Shown piece by piece: positions 848 to 4,577 of a stretch of DNA of 64,000 nucleotides (its first letter is position 1; every line of letters begins with the position of its first letter). Origin of the DNA: Microbacteriaceae bacterium (GTDB lineage Bacteria > Actinomycetota > Actinomycetes > Actinomycetales > Microbacteriaceae). Below the pieces are notes generated by a model, which saw nothing but the letters and a program-made list of their open reading frames with translations, did no database searches and was not told the origin of the DNA. Location of the stretch: NCBI GenBank assembly GCA_947486475.1, contig CANKTR010000002.1, positions 1 to 64,000 of the forward strand, read 5' to 3'. The position numbers were made by a program, and so were the translations under genes.

Positions 848-1840
848 CTACGAGGCTTTGGCCGAAGCGCCCGAGTTGACCTCGTACGAGGTGTTCGTCG
901 ATTCGAAGAAGTTGACCAACTGCAGCGTGTCGTTGGCGGCAGCCATCCACTTCGCGGGGTTGGGCACCTTGTAGTGCGCTTCGAAACCGAGCTCTTCGAG
1001 ACGACGGTCGGCCATGTGCTTGGTGTACTGCGTGATGTATTCCGCGTTGAGACCGAGGATGCCGTTGGGGATCATGGCCTTGTTGTACTCCTCTTCCATC
1101 ACGACGGAGTCCAGAATCATCTGCTTGATTTCGGCAGCGAATTCTTCCGTGGCGATGTCTGGGTTCTCTTCCAGCACCGTGAGGATGAGGTTGATTCCGA
1201 ACTTGAGGTGGAGCGACTCGTCGCGAACGATCCAGTCCACGAGCGAACCGAAGTTACGGAGCAGGTTGCGCTGACGGAACGACAGGGCGACCATGAATCC
1301 GGTGTAGAACCAGATACCTTCCATGATCACCGAGTACGCAACGAGGTTGCGGACGAAGTCCTGCTTGCCCTCGGTGGTGGTGATGTCGAGGCTTCGCTCG
1401 GCCATGCGCTTGATGAACTTGACTTCGAACTCTTCTTTGGCGGCGATGGCCGGGTGATCGACGTGCTGCGCGTAAATCTTTTCGCGGTCCACCGGGAACG
1501 TCTCGAGGATGTACTCGAAGCTCATGCAGTGGTTCGCTTCTTCCCACATCTGCTTGGCGAGGTAAAGGTGCGCCTCGGCTGCGTTGAGGTACGGGTACAC
1601 GCCAAACGCCAGTGCCTTGTTGACGATCAGTTCCGAGGGGTTGAAGAACGACATGAGGAACGTGATGGCTTGCCGTTCTTCATCGGTCATCTTCTTGAAG
1701 TCGGCGATGTCTTCGCCGAGCTGAATTTCGTTCGGGAACCAGGTGTTCGCAACGGCCTGGTTGTACAGGTCCATCGCCCACTGGTAACGAACGGGCTTCA
1801 GCAAAAGTCCGTCTTGGATTCCGGTTCCGAGAATTCCCAT
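848..1840 (-). CDS. nrdB: Class I ribonucleotide reductase small subunit, class Ic-like
   Basis: Beta (R2) subunit of aerobic ribonucleotide reductase, which generates the radical used by NrdA to make dNDPs. The protein has 330 residues with ferritin-like metal ligands Glu70, Glu101, His104, Glu174, Glu208 and His211. Two positions differ from E. coli-type class Ia. The first ligand is Glu70 (SEL) where Asp84 is expected, and the residue 7 after Glu101 is Phe108 (EANHCMSF) where radical Tyr122 is expected. The 31-residue spacing from ligand 1 to ligand 2 is the canonical one. Glu plus Phe is the signature of the Mn/Fe class Ic enzyme of Chlamydia. Tyr319 near the C-terminus could serve in radical transfer. 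The start has a good ribosome site (TTAGGAG). It is co-oriented with nrdA, and the NrdA tail ORF lies between them. Confidence 0.95.
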   Translation of the reverse strand: MGILGTGIQDGLLLKPVRYQWAMDLYNQAVANTWFPNEIQLGEDIADFKKMTDEERQAITFLMSFFNPSELIVNKALAFGVYPYLNAAEAHLYLAKQMWEEANHCMSFEYILETFPVDREKIYAQHVDHPAIAAKEEFEVKFIKRMAERSLDITTTEGKQDFVRNLVAYSVIMEGIWFYTGFMVALSFRQRNLLRNFGSLVDWIVRDESLHLKFGINLILTVLEENPDIATEEFAAEIKQMILDSVVMEEEYNKAMIPNGILGLNAEYITQYTKHMADRRLEELGFEAHYKVPNPAKWMAAANDTLQLVNFFESTNTSYEVNSGASAKAS

Positions 1841-1896: not shown

Positions 1897-1980
1897 TTAC
1901 TGGCAGGAGTCGCACTGGAGCAGATCCATGGGATCTACCGGTACCGAATATTCTCCTACATTGGATTCGAGCGGATTCAT
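1897..1980 (-). CDS. Detached NrdA C-terminal redox tail (27 codons, other frame)
   Basis: A 27-codon ORF begins with an ATG that overlaps the TGA of nrdA (TCATGA) and ends with DPMDLLQCDSCQ and TAA. A C-terminal C-x2-C pair of this kind is the swinging arm that re-reduces the active site of class I R1 proteins and accepts electrons from thioredoxin or glutaredoxin. The NrdA reading frame itself ends in a Gly/Ala/Ser-rich linker with no cysteine near its end. The tail is in the -1 frame relative to nrdA. An in-frame TGA two codons before the ATG limits where a frameshift could occur. Possible explanations are translational coupling through the ATGA overlap, recoding, a recent frameshift mutation, or a one-base sequence error. 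No classic slippery heptamer is visible. Confidence 0.7.
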   Translation of the reverse strand: MNPLESNVGEYSVPVDPMDLLQCDSCQ

Positions 1981-4445
1981 GATTCACCGCCCGTCGACGA
2001 CGATCCGCCGAAGCCGAAGCCTCGTCGGGGTGCGCCAGCCGCAACGGGTTCTGCTGCGGGTGACGGAGCGCCGGCGCTGGTGCCGAAGCCCTTCCTGCTT
2101 CCTCCACTAATTTCTTCGGCCTTGTTGACCTTGACCGTGGACTGTTCTGCGGTGTGGCGCGGCTTCATGTGCAAGTAGTAGGTCGTTTTGACGCCACGAG
2201 TCCACGCACCCGTGTAGATGTCGACCATTTCGTCGATGTCGCGTGTTTCGAGGTACATGTTGCGGCTGATGGCTTGGTCGATCCACTTCTGGGCGCGACC
2301 CGCGACCTCGAGGAACGAATTGGGGTCGAGCTGGAAGCTGGTCTTGTAAATCGCCTTGATGTCATCCGGAATCGAGGCGATGCTCTGGATGTCGCCTTGC
2401 GAACGGAGGATGTCTTCGCGAACCGACTCCCACAGACCGCGGTCGGAGAGAGCATCAACGAGGTTGCGGTTGACCTCGAGGAACTTTCCGCTCGAGGTCG
2501 AGCGCGAGAAGATCTGCGAGAACTGAGGATCGAGACCGGGGGTCGTTCCGGCGACGAGACCGATGGACGCCGTCGGAGCGATGGCCATGAGGGTCGCGTT
2601 GCGGATTCCGCCCTTGACCTTGACGCGAAGCGCATCCCAGTCGAGACGGGTCTTTCGAGAGATCTCGATTGCGACGCCGCGGTCCTTTTCGGCGAGGTCG
2701 ATCGAGTCAAAGGGTACGAGTCCCTGCGACCAGCGCGATCCCTCGAAGTTGTCGTACGAGCCACGCTCGCGGGCGAGGTTCGCCGACTCGTCAATCGCTG
2801 AGTACGAAATGTGCTCGGTGATTTCGTCGATGAGGTCGTAGGCCGCTTCGCTGTCGTACGAGATGCCAAGGCGCTCACAAATATCGGCGAAGCCCATGAG
2901 CCCCAGTCCGACCGCGCGGTTTTCCTTGTTCGCCTTGTCGGCTTCGTGCACCGAGGAACGCGTGATGTCGATGAGGTTGTCGAGCTGGCGAACGGCGACG
3001 CGGGCGCTCTCGTCCATCTTGACCCAGTCGATTTTTCCTGCGACGAGGTGCGTCGAGAGGTTGATCGATGCCAGGTTGCAGACCGAGACGTTCTCGGCGT
3101 CTTGCGGGAGACAGATTTCGGTGCAGAGGTTCGACGAGTGAATCGTGCCGGTGTTGTTGTTAAGTGCACGAAGGTTAATCGTGTCTTTCCAGGTCAGCCA
3201 CGGGTGCGACGACGACTGGAGCGAGATAAGGATCTGCTTGAACTGTTCGCGGGCGGAAATCTTTTTGAAGAGGTTCATTTCCCCCTTTTCCGCCATCGCG
3301 ATGTATTCCGCATAGCGCTTGGAGAACGCGGCGCCATACAGTTCGTTGAGGTCCGTGACCTCGAGCGGGTCGAACAGGTACCAGTCATCGTCGTTCTGGG
3401 CGCGCTTCATGAACTCGTCCGAGATCCACACCGCGGTGTTCGCGGTTCGCGTGCGACGGTAGGGGTCACCGGAGTTCTGACGGAGGTCGAGGAACTCGGG
3501 GAAGTCGAGGTGCCAGTTCTCCATGTAGAAGCACAGAGCGCCGAACTTCTTACCGCCGCGCGAGATCGCGCGGAGAACCGAGTCGATGGTGTGCATGAAG
3601 GGAATCGGTCCGGTCGACACGGTGTTGTTCGAACGGATGGGTGAACCCTGAGCACGCAACTTGGTGACCGAGAGGCCGATGCCACCCGTGCCCTTCGTGA
3701 GCCACATGACGTCGCGCGTGGTCTTGGCGATGTGTTCGATGTCGTCCTGCATTTCGAGGACGAAGCAGTTCGCGAGTTGTGGGTAGGACGTGCCCGCGTT
3801 GACGAGGGTCGAACCGGCGGCCAAATACTCGAGCGTCGACATCTTGCGGTAGAACCGAAGGGCGGTCTCGGTCGGGTTCTTCTCGTTGAGCGAGAGCCCC
3901 ATCGCGATTCGCATCCAGAAATACTGGGGAACCTCGAGCGCGTCGCCGTTGCGTCCCTTGACGCCGTAACGGTTGTTGAGCGTGACCACGCCGATGTACT
4001 TGAGAAGTTCGTCGTGGGCCGGTTCGAGTTCCGCGGCGAGAGTGTCGAAGTCGAACATCTCGACGAGGCGGGAGTCGAGCAGGCCTTCCGTCACTCCGCG
4101 GCGAACGTTCTCTTCAAAGTGCGCAGCGTGGAGTTTCTTCAGTTCATCGGGCGACGAGTAGTCACCGAGAACGCTCTTGTAGATGGTCTTGAGAAGCAGG
4201 CGGGCGGCGATGGTGTCGAACCCGGGATAGTCCTTGACGTTCTGAAGGGCGACCTGGATGACGGCTTCGTCGAGCTGTTGCGACGTGATCCCGTCGAACA
4301 GGGTGAGTTCGAGTTCCGTACCGATTTGGGTGACCCAGGCAAGTTTGTCGGTGAAGCCTTCGGCGGCCTGTTCGATCGCAAGGTTGATTTTGTTCGCGTC
4401 GTATGGCTCGCGACTTCCATCGCGTTTGACGACCGTGATGTTCAT
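1977..4445 (-). CDS. nrdA: Ribonucleoside-diphosphate reductase large subunit
   Basis: Alpha (R1) subunit that reduces ribonucleoside diphosphates; 822 residues from the ATG at 4445. I prefer this start over the ATG at 4505 because the ATP-cone begins directly (MNITVVKRDG) and AGGGAC lies about 10 nt upstream. An N-terminal ATP-cone spans about residues 1-90. Active-site residues are visible: Cys227 (LANCFV), the N-x-C-x-E triad (Asn439, Cys441, Glu443), Cys456 (SVCNLAS) and the Tyr-Tyr radical-transfer pair in KTTYYLH. The last 45 residues are a Gly/Ala/Ser/Pro-rich linker with two RGFG/KGFG motifs and no terminal Cys pair. That pair is encoded by the next small ORF in another frame. The operon promoter has tandem NrdR boxes. 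Confidence 0.95.
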   Translation of the reverse strand: MNITVVKRDGSREPYDANKINLAIEQAAEGFTDKLAWVTQIGTELELTLFDGITSQQLDEAVIQVALQNVKDYPGFDTIAARLLLKTIYKSVLGDYSSPDELKKLHAAHFEENVRRGVTEGLLDSRLVEMFDFDTLAAELEPAHDELLKYIGVVTLNNRYGVKGRNGDALEVPQYFWMRIAMGLSLNEKNPTETALRFYRKMSTLEYLAAGSTLVNAGTSYPQLANCFVLEMQDDIEHIAKTTRDVMWLTKGTGGIGLSVTKLRAQGSPIRSNNTVSTGPIPFMHTIDSVLRAISRGGKKFGALCFYMENWHLDFPEFLDLRQNSGDPYRRTRTANTAVWISDEFMKRAQNDDDWYLFDPLEVTDLNELYGAAFSKRYAEYIAMAEKGEMNLFKKISAREQFKQILISLQSSSHPWLTWKDTINLRALNNNTGTIHSSNLCTEICLPQDAENVSVCNLASINLSTHLVAGKIDWVKMDESARVAVRQLDNLIDITRSSVHEADKANKENRAVGLGLMGFADICERLGISYDSEAAYDLIDEITEHISYSAIDESANLARERGSYDNFEGSRWSQGLVPFDSIDLAEKDRGVAIEISRKTRLDWDALRVKVKGGIRNATLMAIAPTASIGLVAGTTPGLDPQFSQIFSRSTSSGKFLEVNRNLVDALSDRGLWESVREDILRSQGDIQSIASIPDDIKAIYKTSFQLDPNSFLEVAGRAQKWIDQAISRNMYLETRDIDEMVDIYTGAWTRGVKTTYYLHMKPRHTAEQSTVKVNKAEEISGGSRKGFGTSAGAPSPAAEPVAAGAPRRGFGFGGSSSTGGES

Positions 4446-4529: not shown

Positions 4530-4577
4530 ACACTACATCTACGTATTAGATTTGGTCAAGAACCCCATATGTTGTGG
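4530..4577 (-). promoter_or_regulatory. nrdAB promoter with tandem NrdR boxes
   Basis: Two sequences fit the NrdR-box consensus acaCwAtATaTwgtgt: 4530-4545 (10 of 16 by my count, strongest in the first 12 positions) and 4562-4577 (12 of 16). They start 32 bp apart, about three helical turns, the usual spacing of paired NrdR boxes. On the minus strand a -35 TTGACC (4559-4554) and a -10 TAGTGT (4535-4530) are separated by 18 bp. The first box therefore covers the -10 element, which fits repression by NrdR when dATP is high. No nrdR gene lies in this window. Confidence 0.7.

What the first reader, a model, noticed from the sequence alone, without database searches (positions are those of the whole stretch)
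1897..1980. NrdA redox-active C-terminal tail encoded in another frame
The NrdA frame stops after a Gly/Ala-rich linker with no terminal Cys pair. A 27-codon ORF in the -1 frame starts at an ATGA overlap and ends in LLQCDSCQ, the C-x2-C swinging arm found at the end of class I R1 proteins. Without it NrdA could not be re-reduced by thioredoxin. If the sequence is correct, the tail either acts in trans as a separate peptide made by coupled re-initiation, or is joined by recoding. No slippery heptamer is visible and an in-frame TGA lies just before the ATG.
Basis: partly seen in the sequence, partly recalled or inferred. Interest (0 to 1): 0.75.

Follow-up and report, generated by a model that had tools for sequence, protein, structure and literature searches.

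The report
Ribonucleotide reductase tail as separate peptide
In a family of bacteria, the small sulphur-bearing arm that recharges the enzyme making DNA building blocks is not part of the enzyme but a tiny separate gene, usually present twice per genome and also carried by phages and plasmids.

Summary
NrdA (4445..1977, minus strand) ends without a terminal Cys pair. A 27-codon ORF (1980..1897) overlaps its stop as ATGA and ends YSVPVDPMDLLQCDSCQ. Of 80 related loci from a named collection, 76 show the same split. The tail lies in all three relative frames, which excludes frameshifting as the general mechanism. In 299 family genomes the tail occurs in 122 of 122 with this NrdA and in 3 of the other 177. 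Of 38 tail-bearing genomes listed in full, 36 have both an nrdA-adjacent and a distant copy, 2 only a distant one. One distant copy per genome was tested for NrdR boxes: 35 of 35 have a pair; 0 of 18 further copies do. Phages and plasmids of such hosts carry free tails too, and one uncultured phage has the order tail-nrdA. In hits elsewhere in the order the tail is fused to NrdA. Best reading: a trans-acting redox-tail peptide, i.e. a split class I RNR that my literature searches did not find described. That it reduces NrdA is inferred; nothing was measured.

The parts
1977..4445 (-). nrdA: class I RNR catalytic subunit without a redox tail (822 aa from ATG 4445; ORF open to GTG 4505), ending ...RRGFGFGGSSSTGGES
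   Evidence: NF005101 1578 bits vs cut-off 988; PF03477, PF00317, PF02867; best PDB match is P. aeruginosa NrdA (5im3). Cys227/Cys441/Cys456 and Tyr756/Tyr757 (numbered from Met 4445) align with Cys and Tyr there
1897..1980 (-). tail-peptide gene (27 aa), start overlapping the NrdA stop as ATGA; ends CDSCQ
   Evidence: conserved in the family; pN/pS 0.19 in the genus
1900..1953 (-). conserved core EYSVPVDPMDLLQCDSCQ; Cys codons at 1914-1912 and 1905-1903
   Evidence: Alignment A2 and column conservation: P, D, P, M, C, C, Q at or above 97% in all four sets
1984..1988 (-). weak Shine-Dalgarno-like GGTGA, 3 nt before the tail ATG and inside the nrdA 3' end
   Evidence: weak on its own, so translational coupling is inferred
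848..1840 (-). nrdB: radical subunit (330 aa), 56 nt after the tail stop, own AGGAG at 1850-1846
   Evidence: (PF00268), 97: best PDB match is 1syy, Phe108 aligned with its Phe127, i.e. class Ic-like
4562..4577 (-). NrdR-box-like CCACAACATATGGGGT upstream of nrdA
   Evidence: pair with 16-nt spacer beats all 100 shuffles; 66 of the 68 nrdA upstream stretches that could be read, at p<=0.05. The single-box scan is not significant (2 found, 1.2 expected)
4530..4545 (-). second NrdR-box-like site TACGTAGATGTAGTGT

Best explanation
The redox-active C-terminal tail of this class I NrdA has become a separate gene product (21-57 aa in 76 distinct junctions, commonest 26-27) that works in trans. Shown by sequence: separate ORFs, selection on the peptide, strict co-occurrence with the tail-less NrdA, homology to the fused tail of NrdA in other families, a second copy elsewhere with NrdR boxes, and copies on phages and plasmids. 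Inferred: the nrdA-adjacent copy is made by termination-reinitiation at the ATGA/TGATG junction. The peptide docks on NrdA through its conserved [Y/F]xVPxDPM[D/E]xL segment, perhaps helped by the [RK]GF[GA] motif near the end of the NrdA linker. Its C-x2-C dithiol reduces the active-site disulfide (Cys227-Cys456) formed at each turnover, and the oxidised peptide is re-reduced by thioredoxin or an NrdH-like redoxin. The NrdR-boxed copy would raise the peptide supply when RNR genes are derepressed. Phage and plasmid copies would supply peptide outside that control.
For: 76 of 80 loci split; three relative frames, start from 1 base before to 61 bases after the first base of the NrdA stop; tail in 122 of 122 genomes with this NrdA against 3 of 177 others, Fisher p about 1e-81 (the three have no or only a partial NrdA match); distant copy in 38 of 38 fully listed tail genomes, adjacent copy in 36; NrdR box pair with 16-17 nt spacer at 35 of 35 distant copies tested, one per genome, against 0 of 35 and 0 of 66 control stretches; fused homologous tail CP[VI]DPMExLQCxSCQ at the NrdA C-terminus in 17 of 17 hits outside the family; at least 120 IMG/VR stretches with the motif against 0 for a reversed-motif control, 79 of the 80 handed out stopping right after ..CQ; tail upstream of a tail-less nrdA in phage locus L276; tail-like end on an NrdH-like redoxin in Naasia lichenicola.
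Against: No expression, binding or enzyme data. The redoxin in the Naasia fusion lacks its own CxxC and its Pfam match is below cut-off (16.6 vs 22.9 bits). Genome G030 has the peptide but only one partial thioredoxin match and no glutaredoxin match, so its reductant is unexplained. Many phage copies sit behind holin genes (17 of 41 scanned upstream ORFs), an odd place for a nucleotide-metabolism gene. The further distant copies have no NrdR boxes (0 of 18), so not every copy is RNR-regulated.
Confidence: 0.88

Rival explanations
1. Programmed -1 frameshifting or other recoding joins the tail to NrdA.
For: In 67 of 76 distinct junctions the tail is in the frame reached by a -1 shift; 8 of 76 have an XXXYYYZ heptamer near the stop.
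Against: 9 of 76 junctions are in other frames; some have SD-bearing gaps; a TGA stop lies in the tail frame just upstream in the window; in 5 genomes the tail was found only elsewhere; one phage has it upstream of nrdA. Local RNA folding at the window junction is not unusual (z 0.79).
Confidence: 0.02
2. Assembly or read error that broke a single frame.
For: L016 (G024), where the NrdA frame runs past the tail without a stop, may be such a case.
Against: The same architecture with different junctions is found in 76 of 80 loci from many assemblies, isolates among them.
Confidence: 0.01
3. The peptide is an RNR-associated regulator or inhibitor, or a thiol peptide with another job, rather than the reducing arm; phage and plasmid copies would then interfere with host RNR.
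For: Phage copies often follow holin genes, and supernumerary copies sit on what look like mobile elements and on plasmids.
Against: Homology to the fused catalytic tail, near-invariant CxxCQ end and strict co-occurrence with tail-less NrdA fit the reducing arm better.
Confidence: 0.07
4. NrdA here is reduced directly by a small thiol (e.g. mycothiol) or another donor and the peptide is a dispensable relic.
For: G030 keeps an NrdA of this type with no glutaredoxin match and only one partial thioredoxin match.
Against: The peptide is under purifying selection, kept in 122 of 122 genomes, and kept behind NrdR boxes.
Confidence: 0.02

Closest known systems
Split class II RNR NrdJa/NrdJb of Pseudomonas aeruginosa (PMC4520616; abstract, introduction and discussion read)
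   Same: RNR divided into a catalytic chain and a second chain carrying the reductive cysteines; both genes in one operon; the small chain does the dithiol exchange
   Different: That one is class II (B12) and its small chain has 229 residues. Here it is class I (NrdA/NrdB) with a peptide of about 27 aa, usually two copies per genome, one behind NrdR boxes, and copies on phages and plasmids. The 2015 paper calls NrdJ the only split RNR found in a non-viral organism
Split nrdA of Aeromonas phage Aeh1 (PMC2988022 and PMC3653736, passages seen)
   Same: class I nrdA in two coding regions, reported functional as two chains
   Different: There a homing endonuclease (in one paper an intein) lies at the split, in a functionally critical region; here the break is at the linker before the redox tail, with no mobile insert in the window
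Fused redox tail of class I NrdA, e.g. Demequina
   Same: same motif (CPVDPMExLQCESCQ)
   Different: attached to NrdA, as in ordinary class I RNR
Glutaredoxin fused to NrdB in Facklamia ignava (PMC6187632, abstract seen)
   Same: rearranged linkage between an RNR and its reductant
   Different: there a whole redoxin is fused to NrdB; here the NrdA tail itself is detached

Membership tests
Class I RNR catalytic subunit (NrdA) | ATP-cone, all-alpha and barrel domains; catalytic Cys triad and Tyr pair | tested here: met
   (roles of the residues recalled)
Class I RNR catalytic subunit (NrdA) | C-terminal redox Cys pair on the same chain | tested here: not met
   absent from the NrdA frame; present on a separate ORF
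Class Ic-type NrdB | Phe in place of the radical Tyr | tested here: met
   Phe108 aligned with Phe127 of 1syy (that this is the radical-Tyr position is recalled)
Class Ic-type NrdB | Mn/Fe cofactor | not testable with these tools
   needs purified protein
Split RNR of the NrdJa/NrdJb kind | separate gene for the chain carrying the reductive cysteines | tested here: met
Split RNR of the NrdJa/NrdJb kind | class II, B12-dependent, about 229-residue small chain | tested here: not met
   class I, 27-aa peptide
Split RNR of the NrdJa/NrdJb kind | physical complex and dithiol exchange by the small chain | not testable with these tools
NrdR regulon (one distant copy per genome, and nrdA) | pair of NrdR boxes 15-17 nt apart and an NrdR gene | tested here: met
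   boxes; NrdR over cut-off in 38 of 38 genomes; spacing rule from PMC12051234 passages. The box consensus used is recalled. Not met by the 18 further distant copies tested
NrdR regulon (one distant copy per genome, and nrdA) | NrdR binding | not testable with these tools
   needs binding assay
Programmed ribosomal frameshift gene | fixed frame relation and slippery site | tested here: not met

The most novel reading that the evidence does not exclude
The RNR redox tail has become a diffusible, exchangeable peptide. Hosts keep a cistron coupled to nrdA plus an NrdR-boxed spare, and phages and plasmids of these hosts carry their own copies, mostly without NrdR boxes (2 of 78 phage copies have them; 0 of 18 further chromosomal copies), at least once fused to a redoxin-like protein, to steer host dNTP synthesis through the peptide alone.
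Probability: 0.5. Interest if true: 0.93.

Novelty: new variant of a known kind. Interest (0 to 1): 0.86.

Why it matters
Class I RNR is an essential enzyme in which the swinging tail is taken to be part of the catalytic chain. A widespread natural system with that arm detached makes the mechanism directly testable: affinity, stoichiometry, whether one peptide serves several active sites, and which redoxin it meets. It also points to a probably essential protein of about 27 aa, largely unannotated, and to a compact handle by which phages and plasmids could act on host DNA-precursor synthesis.

Tried and rejected
Tried and rejected. (1) Read error and recoding: rejected (see rivals). (2) My idea that G030 (927,303 bp; I recall this as the size of a Tropheryma whipplei genome, no call names it) had lost the tail together with thioredoxin: wrong, it has the tail about 33 kb away. 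Paper searches on its thioredoxin gave nothing on the point (passage of PMC12886343). (3) Structured RNA at the junction: none found. (4) Single NrdR-box scan of the window: not significant; only the paired-box test is. (5) Pfam, NCBIfam and PHROGs for the peptide: no family (one chance-level Pfam match at E 0.28 for a phage tail). (6) NrdR boxes at all copies: no. The 35 distant copies tested were one per genome: 20 were the only distant copy of their genome, 15 had been met earlier, some with boxes already seen. The 18 further copies gave 0. (7) Phylum-wide draw: of 396 genomes only G001 has free tails; G757 is fused, and G814 is a weak match in which no such NrdA end was found. So I found no other host lineage with free tails, and the hosts of the IMG/VR phages with a CPVDPME-type tail are unknown. 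(8) Structure prediction: not available. (9) L190 as a second redoxin-tail fusion: by eye only; Pfam gave no redoxin match. Chance matches: five Staphylococcus phage records. Rows dropped: of 102 loci with the KTTYYLH motif (duplicates between and the window included) 93 gave a split tail with a start; left out were 2 fused (L018, L019), 4 without an adjacent tail (L020, L088, L096, L109), 2 truncated (L001 and L031, the same contig) and L016; identical junctions were collapsed to 76. In one search, 68 nrdA upstreams could be read (the window and 67 of the 79 loci L032-L110); the two that fail include L096. In one search, 41 of the 70 upstream ORFs were scanned, chosen by me. One search failed and was rerun.

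Full report
WHAT IS THERE. On the minus strand the window holds nrdA (ATG 4445 to TGA 1979-1977), a 27-codon ORF (1980..1897) and nrdB (1840..848). NrdA ends ...RRGFGFGGSSSTGGES without a Cys pair. The small ORF starts at the ATGA overlap and reads MNPLESNVGEYSVPVDPMDLLQCDSCQ. NrdA matches NF005101 at 1578 bits (cut-off 988) and has the ATP-cone, all-alpha and barrel domains. Aligned with P. aeruginosa NrdA (5im3) it has Cys at 227, 441 and 456 and a Tyr pair at 756/757, numbered from Met 4445. Their roles (active-site pair, thiyl Cys, radical path) are recalled from E. coli RNR. NrdB has Phe at the radical-Tyr position.

THE SPLIT IS CONSERVED. A scan of a named genome collection with an alignment of nine NrdAs kept the best 80 of 430 loci. 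In 76 a short tail ORF follows the NrdA stop; three lack it there (L088, L096, L109) and in one the contig ends inside it. Over 76 distinct junctions (93 before collapsing duplicates; loci and the window) the start lies at -1 (23 cases), +2 (34), +3 (2), +5 (5), +6 (2), +7, +8, +12, +14 (3), +19, +29, +60 and +61 relative to the first base of the NrdA stop. Relative frames are 67, 6 and 3; starts are 69 ATG and 7 GTG; lengths 21-57 aa, 26 or 27 in 31 of 76. In L004 the stop is followed in the same frame by the ATG; in L007, L009 and L010 an AAGGAG and a gap intervene. A frameshift cannot serve all of these. The last 18 codons show pN/pS of 0.19 (13 sequences of the window's genus), 0.29 (66 of the family), 0.21 (35 distant copies) and 0.28 (77 phage copies) (one of the 66 rows, L043, was a wrong pick).

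CO-OCCURRENCE. In 299 genomes drawn from the family, the tail profile A2 matched 125 and NF005101 passed its cut-off in 122. All 122 are among the 125. The other three (G080, G200, G307) have a partial or no NrdA match. The remaining 174 have neither. In 248 genomes of the order, each of the 17 hits outside the family is the end of a long NrdA frame (869-1098 aa) with a fused tail of the type CP[VI]DPMExLQCxSCQ; a protein search finds the same in Demequina NrdA. So the fused form occurs outside and the split was seen only in this family in what was sampled; in 396 genomes of the phylum no other free tail appeared.

A SECOND COPY ELSEWHERE. In the four genomes without an adjacent tail (G030, and those of L088, L096 and L109) the tail is elsewhere. 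Of 80 family genomes whose matches were all listed, 38 have tails: 36 have an adjacent and at least one distant copy, and 2 (G030, G094) only a distant one. The genome nearest to the window, G001, has a distant copy (MDFDNDSVGGYAVPVDPMDLLQCDSCQ, L202). One distant copy per genome usually stands near MaoC-like and murB-like genes (sequence motifs in 32 and 25 of 35 loci; gene names are my reading). Upstream of it, 35 of 35 tested copies have a pair of NrdR-box-like palindromes with a spacer of 16-17 nt at p<=0.01 against 200 dinucleotide shuffles. Twenty of these were the only distant copy of their genome; some of the other 15 were taken after boxes had been seen. The same test gave 0 of 35 for stretches downstream, 0 of 66 for stretches inside nrdA just before the adjacent tail and 0 of 18 for further distant copies. 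The 16-nt consensus is recalled; the spacing rule (15-16 bp usual, 15-17 best for the Streptomyces NrdR) is from passages of PMC12051234. nrdA itself has such a pair in 66 of 68 readable upstream stretches, the window included. NrdR is present in 38 of 38 tail genomes.

MOBILE COPIES. Third and further copies lie in what look, by eye, like prophages or other mobile DNA, several right behind small membrane-protein genes. Cultured phages phiPsal1 (Pontimonas) and CMP1 and CN1A (Clavibacter) encode unannotated tails, in phiPsal1 and CMP1 right after the holin; the tblastn E-values are weak (0.06-0.2) but each frame ends CxxCQ-stop. A degenerate pattern for DPM[DE] ... Of 41 scanned ORFs upstream of phage tails, 17 match holin family phrog_443. 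Phage copies mostly lack NrdR boxes (2 of 78 pass the test). In L276, from an uncultured phage, the order is tail, then an nrdA with an intein-like insert that ends RKGFGFKSAN without a tail. Nineteen plasmid records match the tail (E 4e-5 to 8e-2), all from Clavibacter (15), Leifsonia (3) and Gryllotalpicola (1); I read one of them. In Naasia lichenicola a tail-like end (PVDPEDGLDCDSCQ) is part of a protein that NCBI calls NrdH-redoxin and that lacks the redoxin CxxC. L190 looks to me like a second such fusion, but Pfam shows no redoxin there.

MECHANISM. Shown: separate genes, selection, co-occurrence, homology to the fused tail, NrdR boxes at one copy, mobile copies. Inferred: coupled re-initiation at the junction; docking through the conserved core; reduction of the Cys227-Cys456 disulfide; re-reduction by thioredoxin or an NrdH-type redoxin. 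NrdA keeps an [RK]GF[GA] motif 8-19 residues from its end in 99 of 99 loci examined, a candidate docking site, though related motifs also occur in fused NrdA (L018). Against: of 8 genomes examined G030 has one partial thioredoxin match where the others have 4-7, and no glutaredoxin match (nor has the incomplete G001); phage copies sit in lysis regions; nothing has been measured.

LITERATURE. Searches for split RNRs, trans tails, nrdA in Microbacteriaceae, small RNR proteins and phage RNR genes listed, in titles and abstract starts, no report of such a peptide; they cover open-licence PMC papers only. Passages of PMC9669993 and PMC5704485 describe the tail as part of the chain; the passages of PMC9531940 say nothing of a detached one. 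The nearest cases are the split class II NrdJ (PMC4520616; [quoted passage not shown] Of 14 public proteins with longer free tails those with a name are hypothetical proteins; one 33-aa plasmid copy is labelled ribonucleotide-diphosphate reductase subunit beta.

VERDICT. The finding is real and larger than reported: a class I RNR whose redox tail is a separate, usually duplicated and mobile peptide gene.

Noticed in passing
window 848-1840 (-): NrdB has Phe108 where the radical Tyr would be, aligned with Phe127 of the Chlamydia-type R2 1syy: a tyrosyl-free, class Ic-like radical subunit (species of 1syy recalled).
   Followed up: partly
L276:9782-13317: Uncultured phage with the tail gene upstream of an nrdA that carries an intein-like insert and lacks a tail.
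   Followed up: partly
L121:1240-1542 and L190:544-930: L121: NrdH-like protein that lacks its own CxxC and ends in an RNR-tail-like motif. L190: a similar-looking ORF by eye, without a Pfam redoxin match.
   Followed up: partly
L188:4067-4702 (-), L189:3037-3699, L192:3092-3775: Tail motif at the C-terminus of longer ORFs of unknown function on likely mobile DNA.
   Followed up: no
G030 (L117, L128): 927-kb genome with a boxed tail but no glutaredoxin match and only one partial thioredoxin match: reductant of its RNR unclear.
   Followed up: partly
L096:5490-5540: Where the adjacent tail is missing in Naasia lichenicola, a long GC-rich inverted repeat lies between nrdA and nrdB (seen by eye); this nrdA also lacks a readable NrdR box pair.
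   Followed up: no
L016 (G024): NrdA frame runs through the tail region without a stop; possibly an indel in a one-contig genome rated 86% complete.
   Followed up: no
L357:2495-2575: Phage Pan2, recorded host Pseudanabaena, encodes MDDFDTIDGFACPNDPADLVSCESCQ in a frame other than the annotated CDS; a cyanobacterial host would be unexpected.
   Followed up: partly
L356:3965-4066 (WP_223361114.1): 33-aa tail on a Leifsonia plasmid is labelled ribonucleotide-diphosphate reductase subunit beta, a misleading name.
   Followed up: yes
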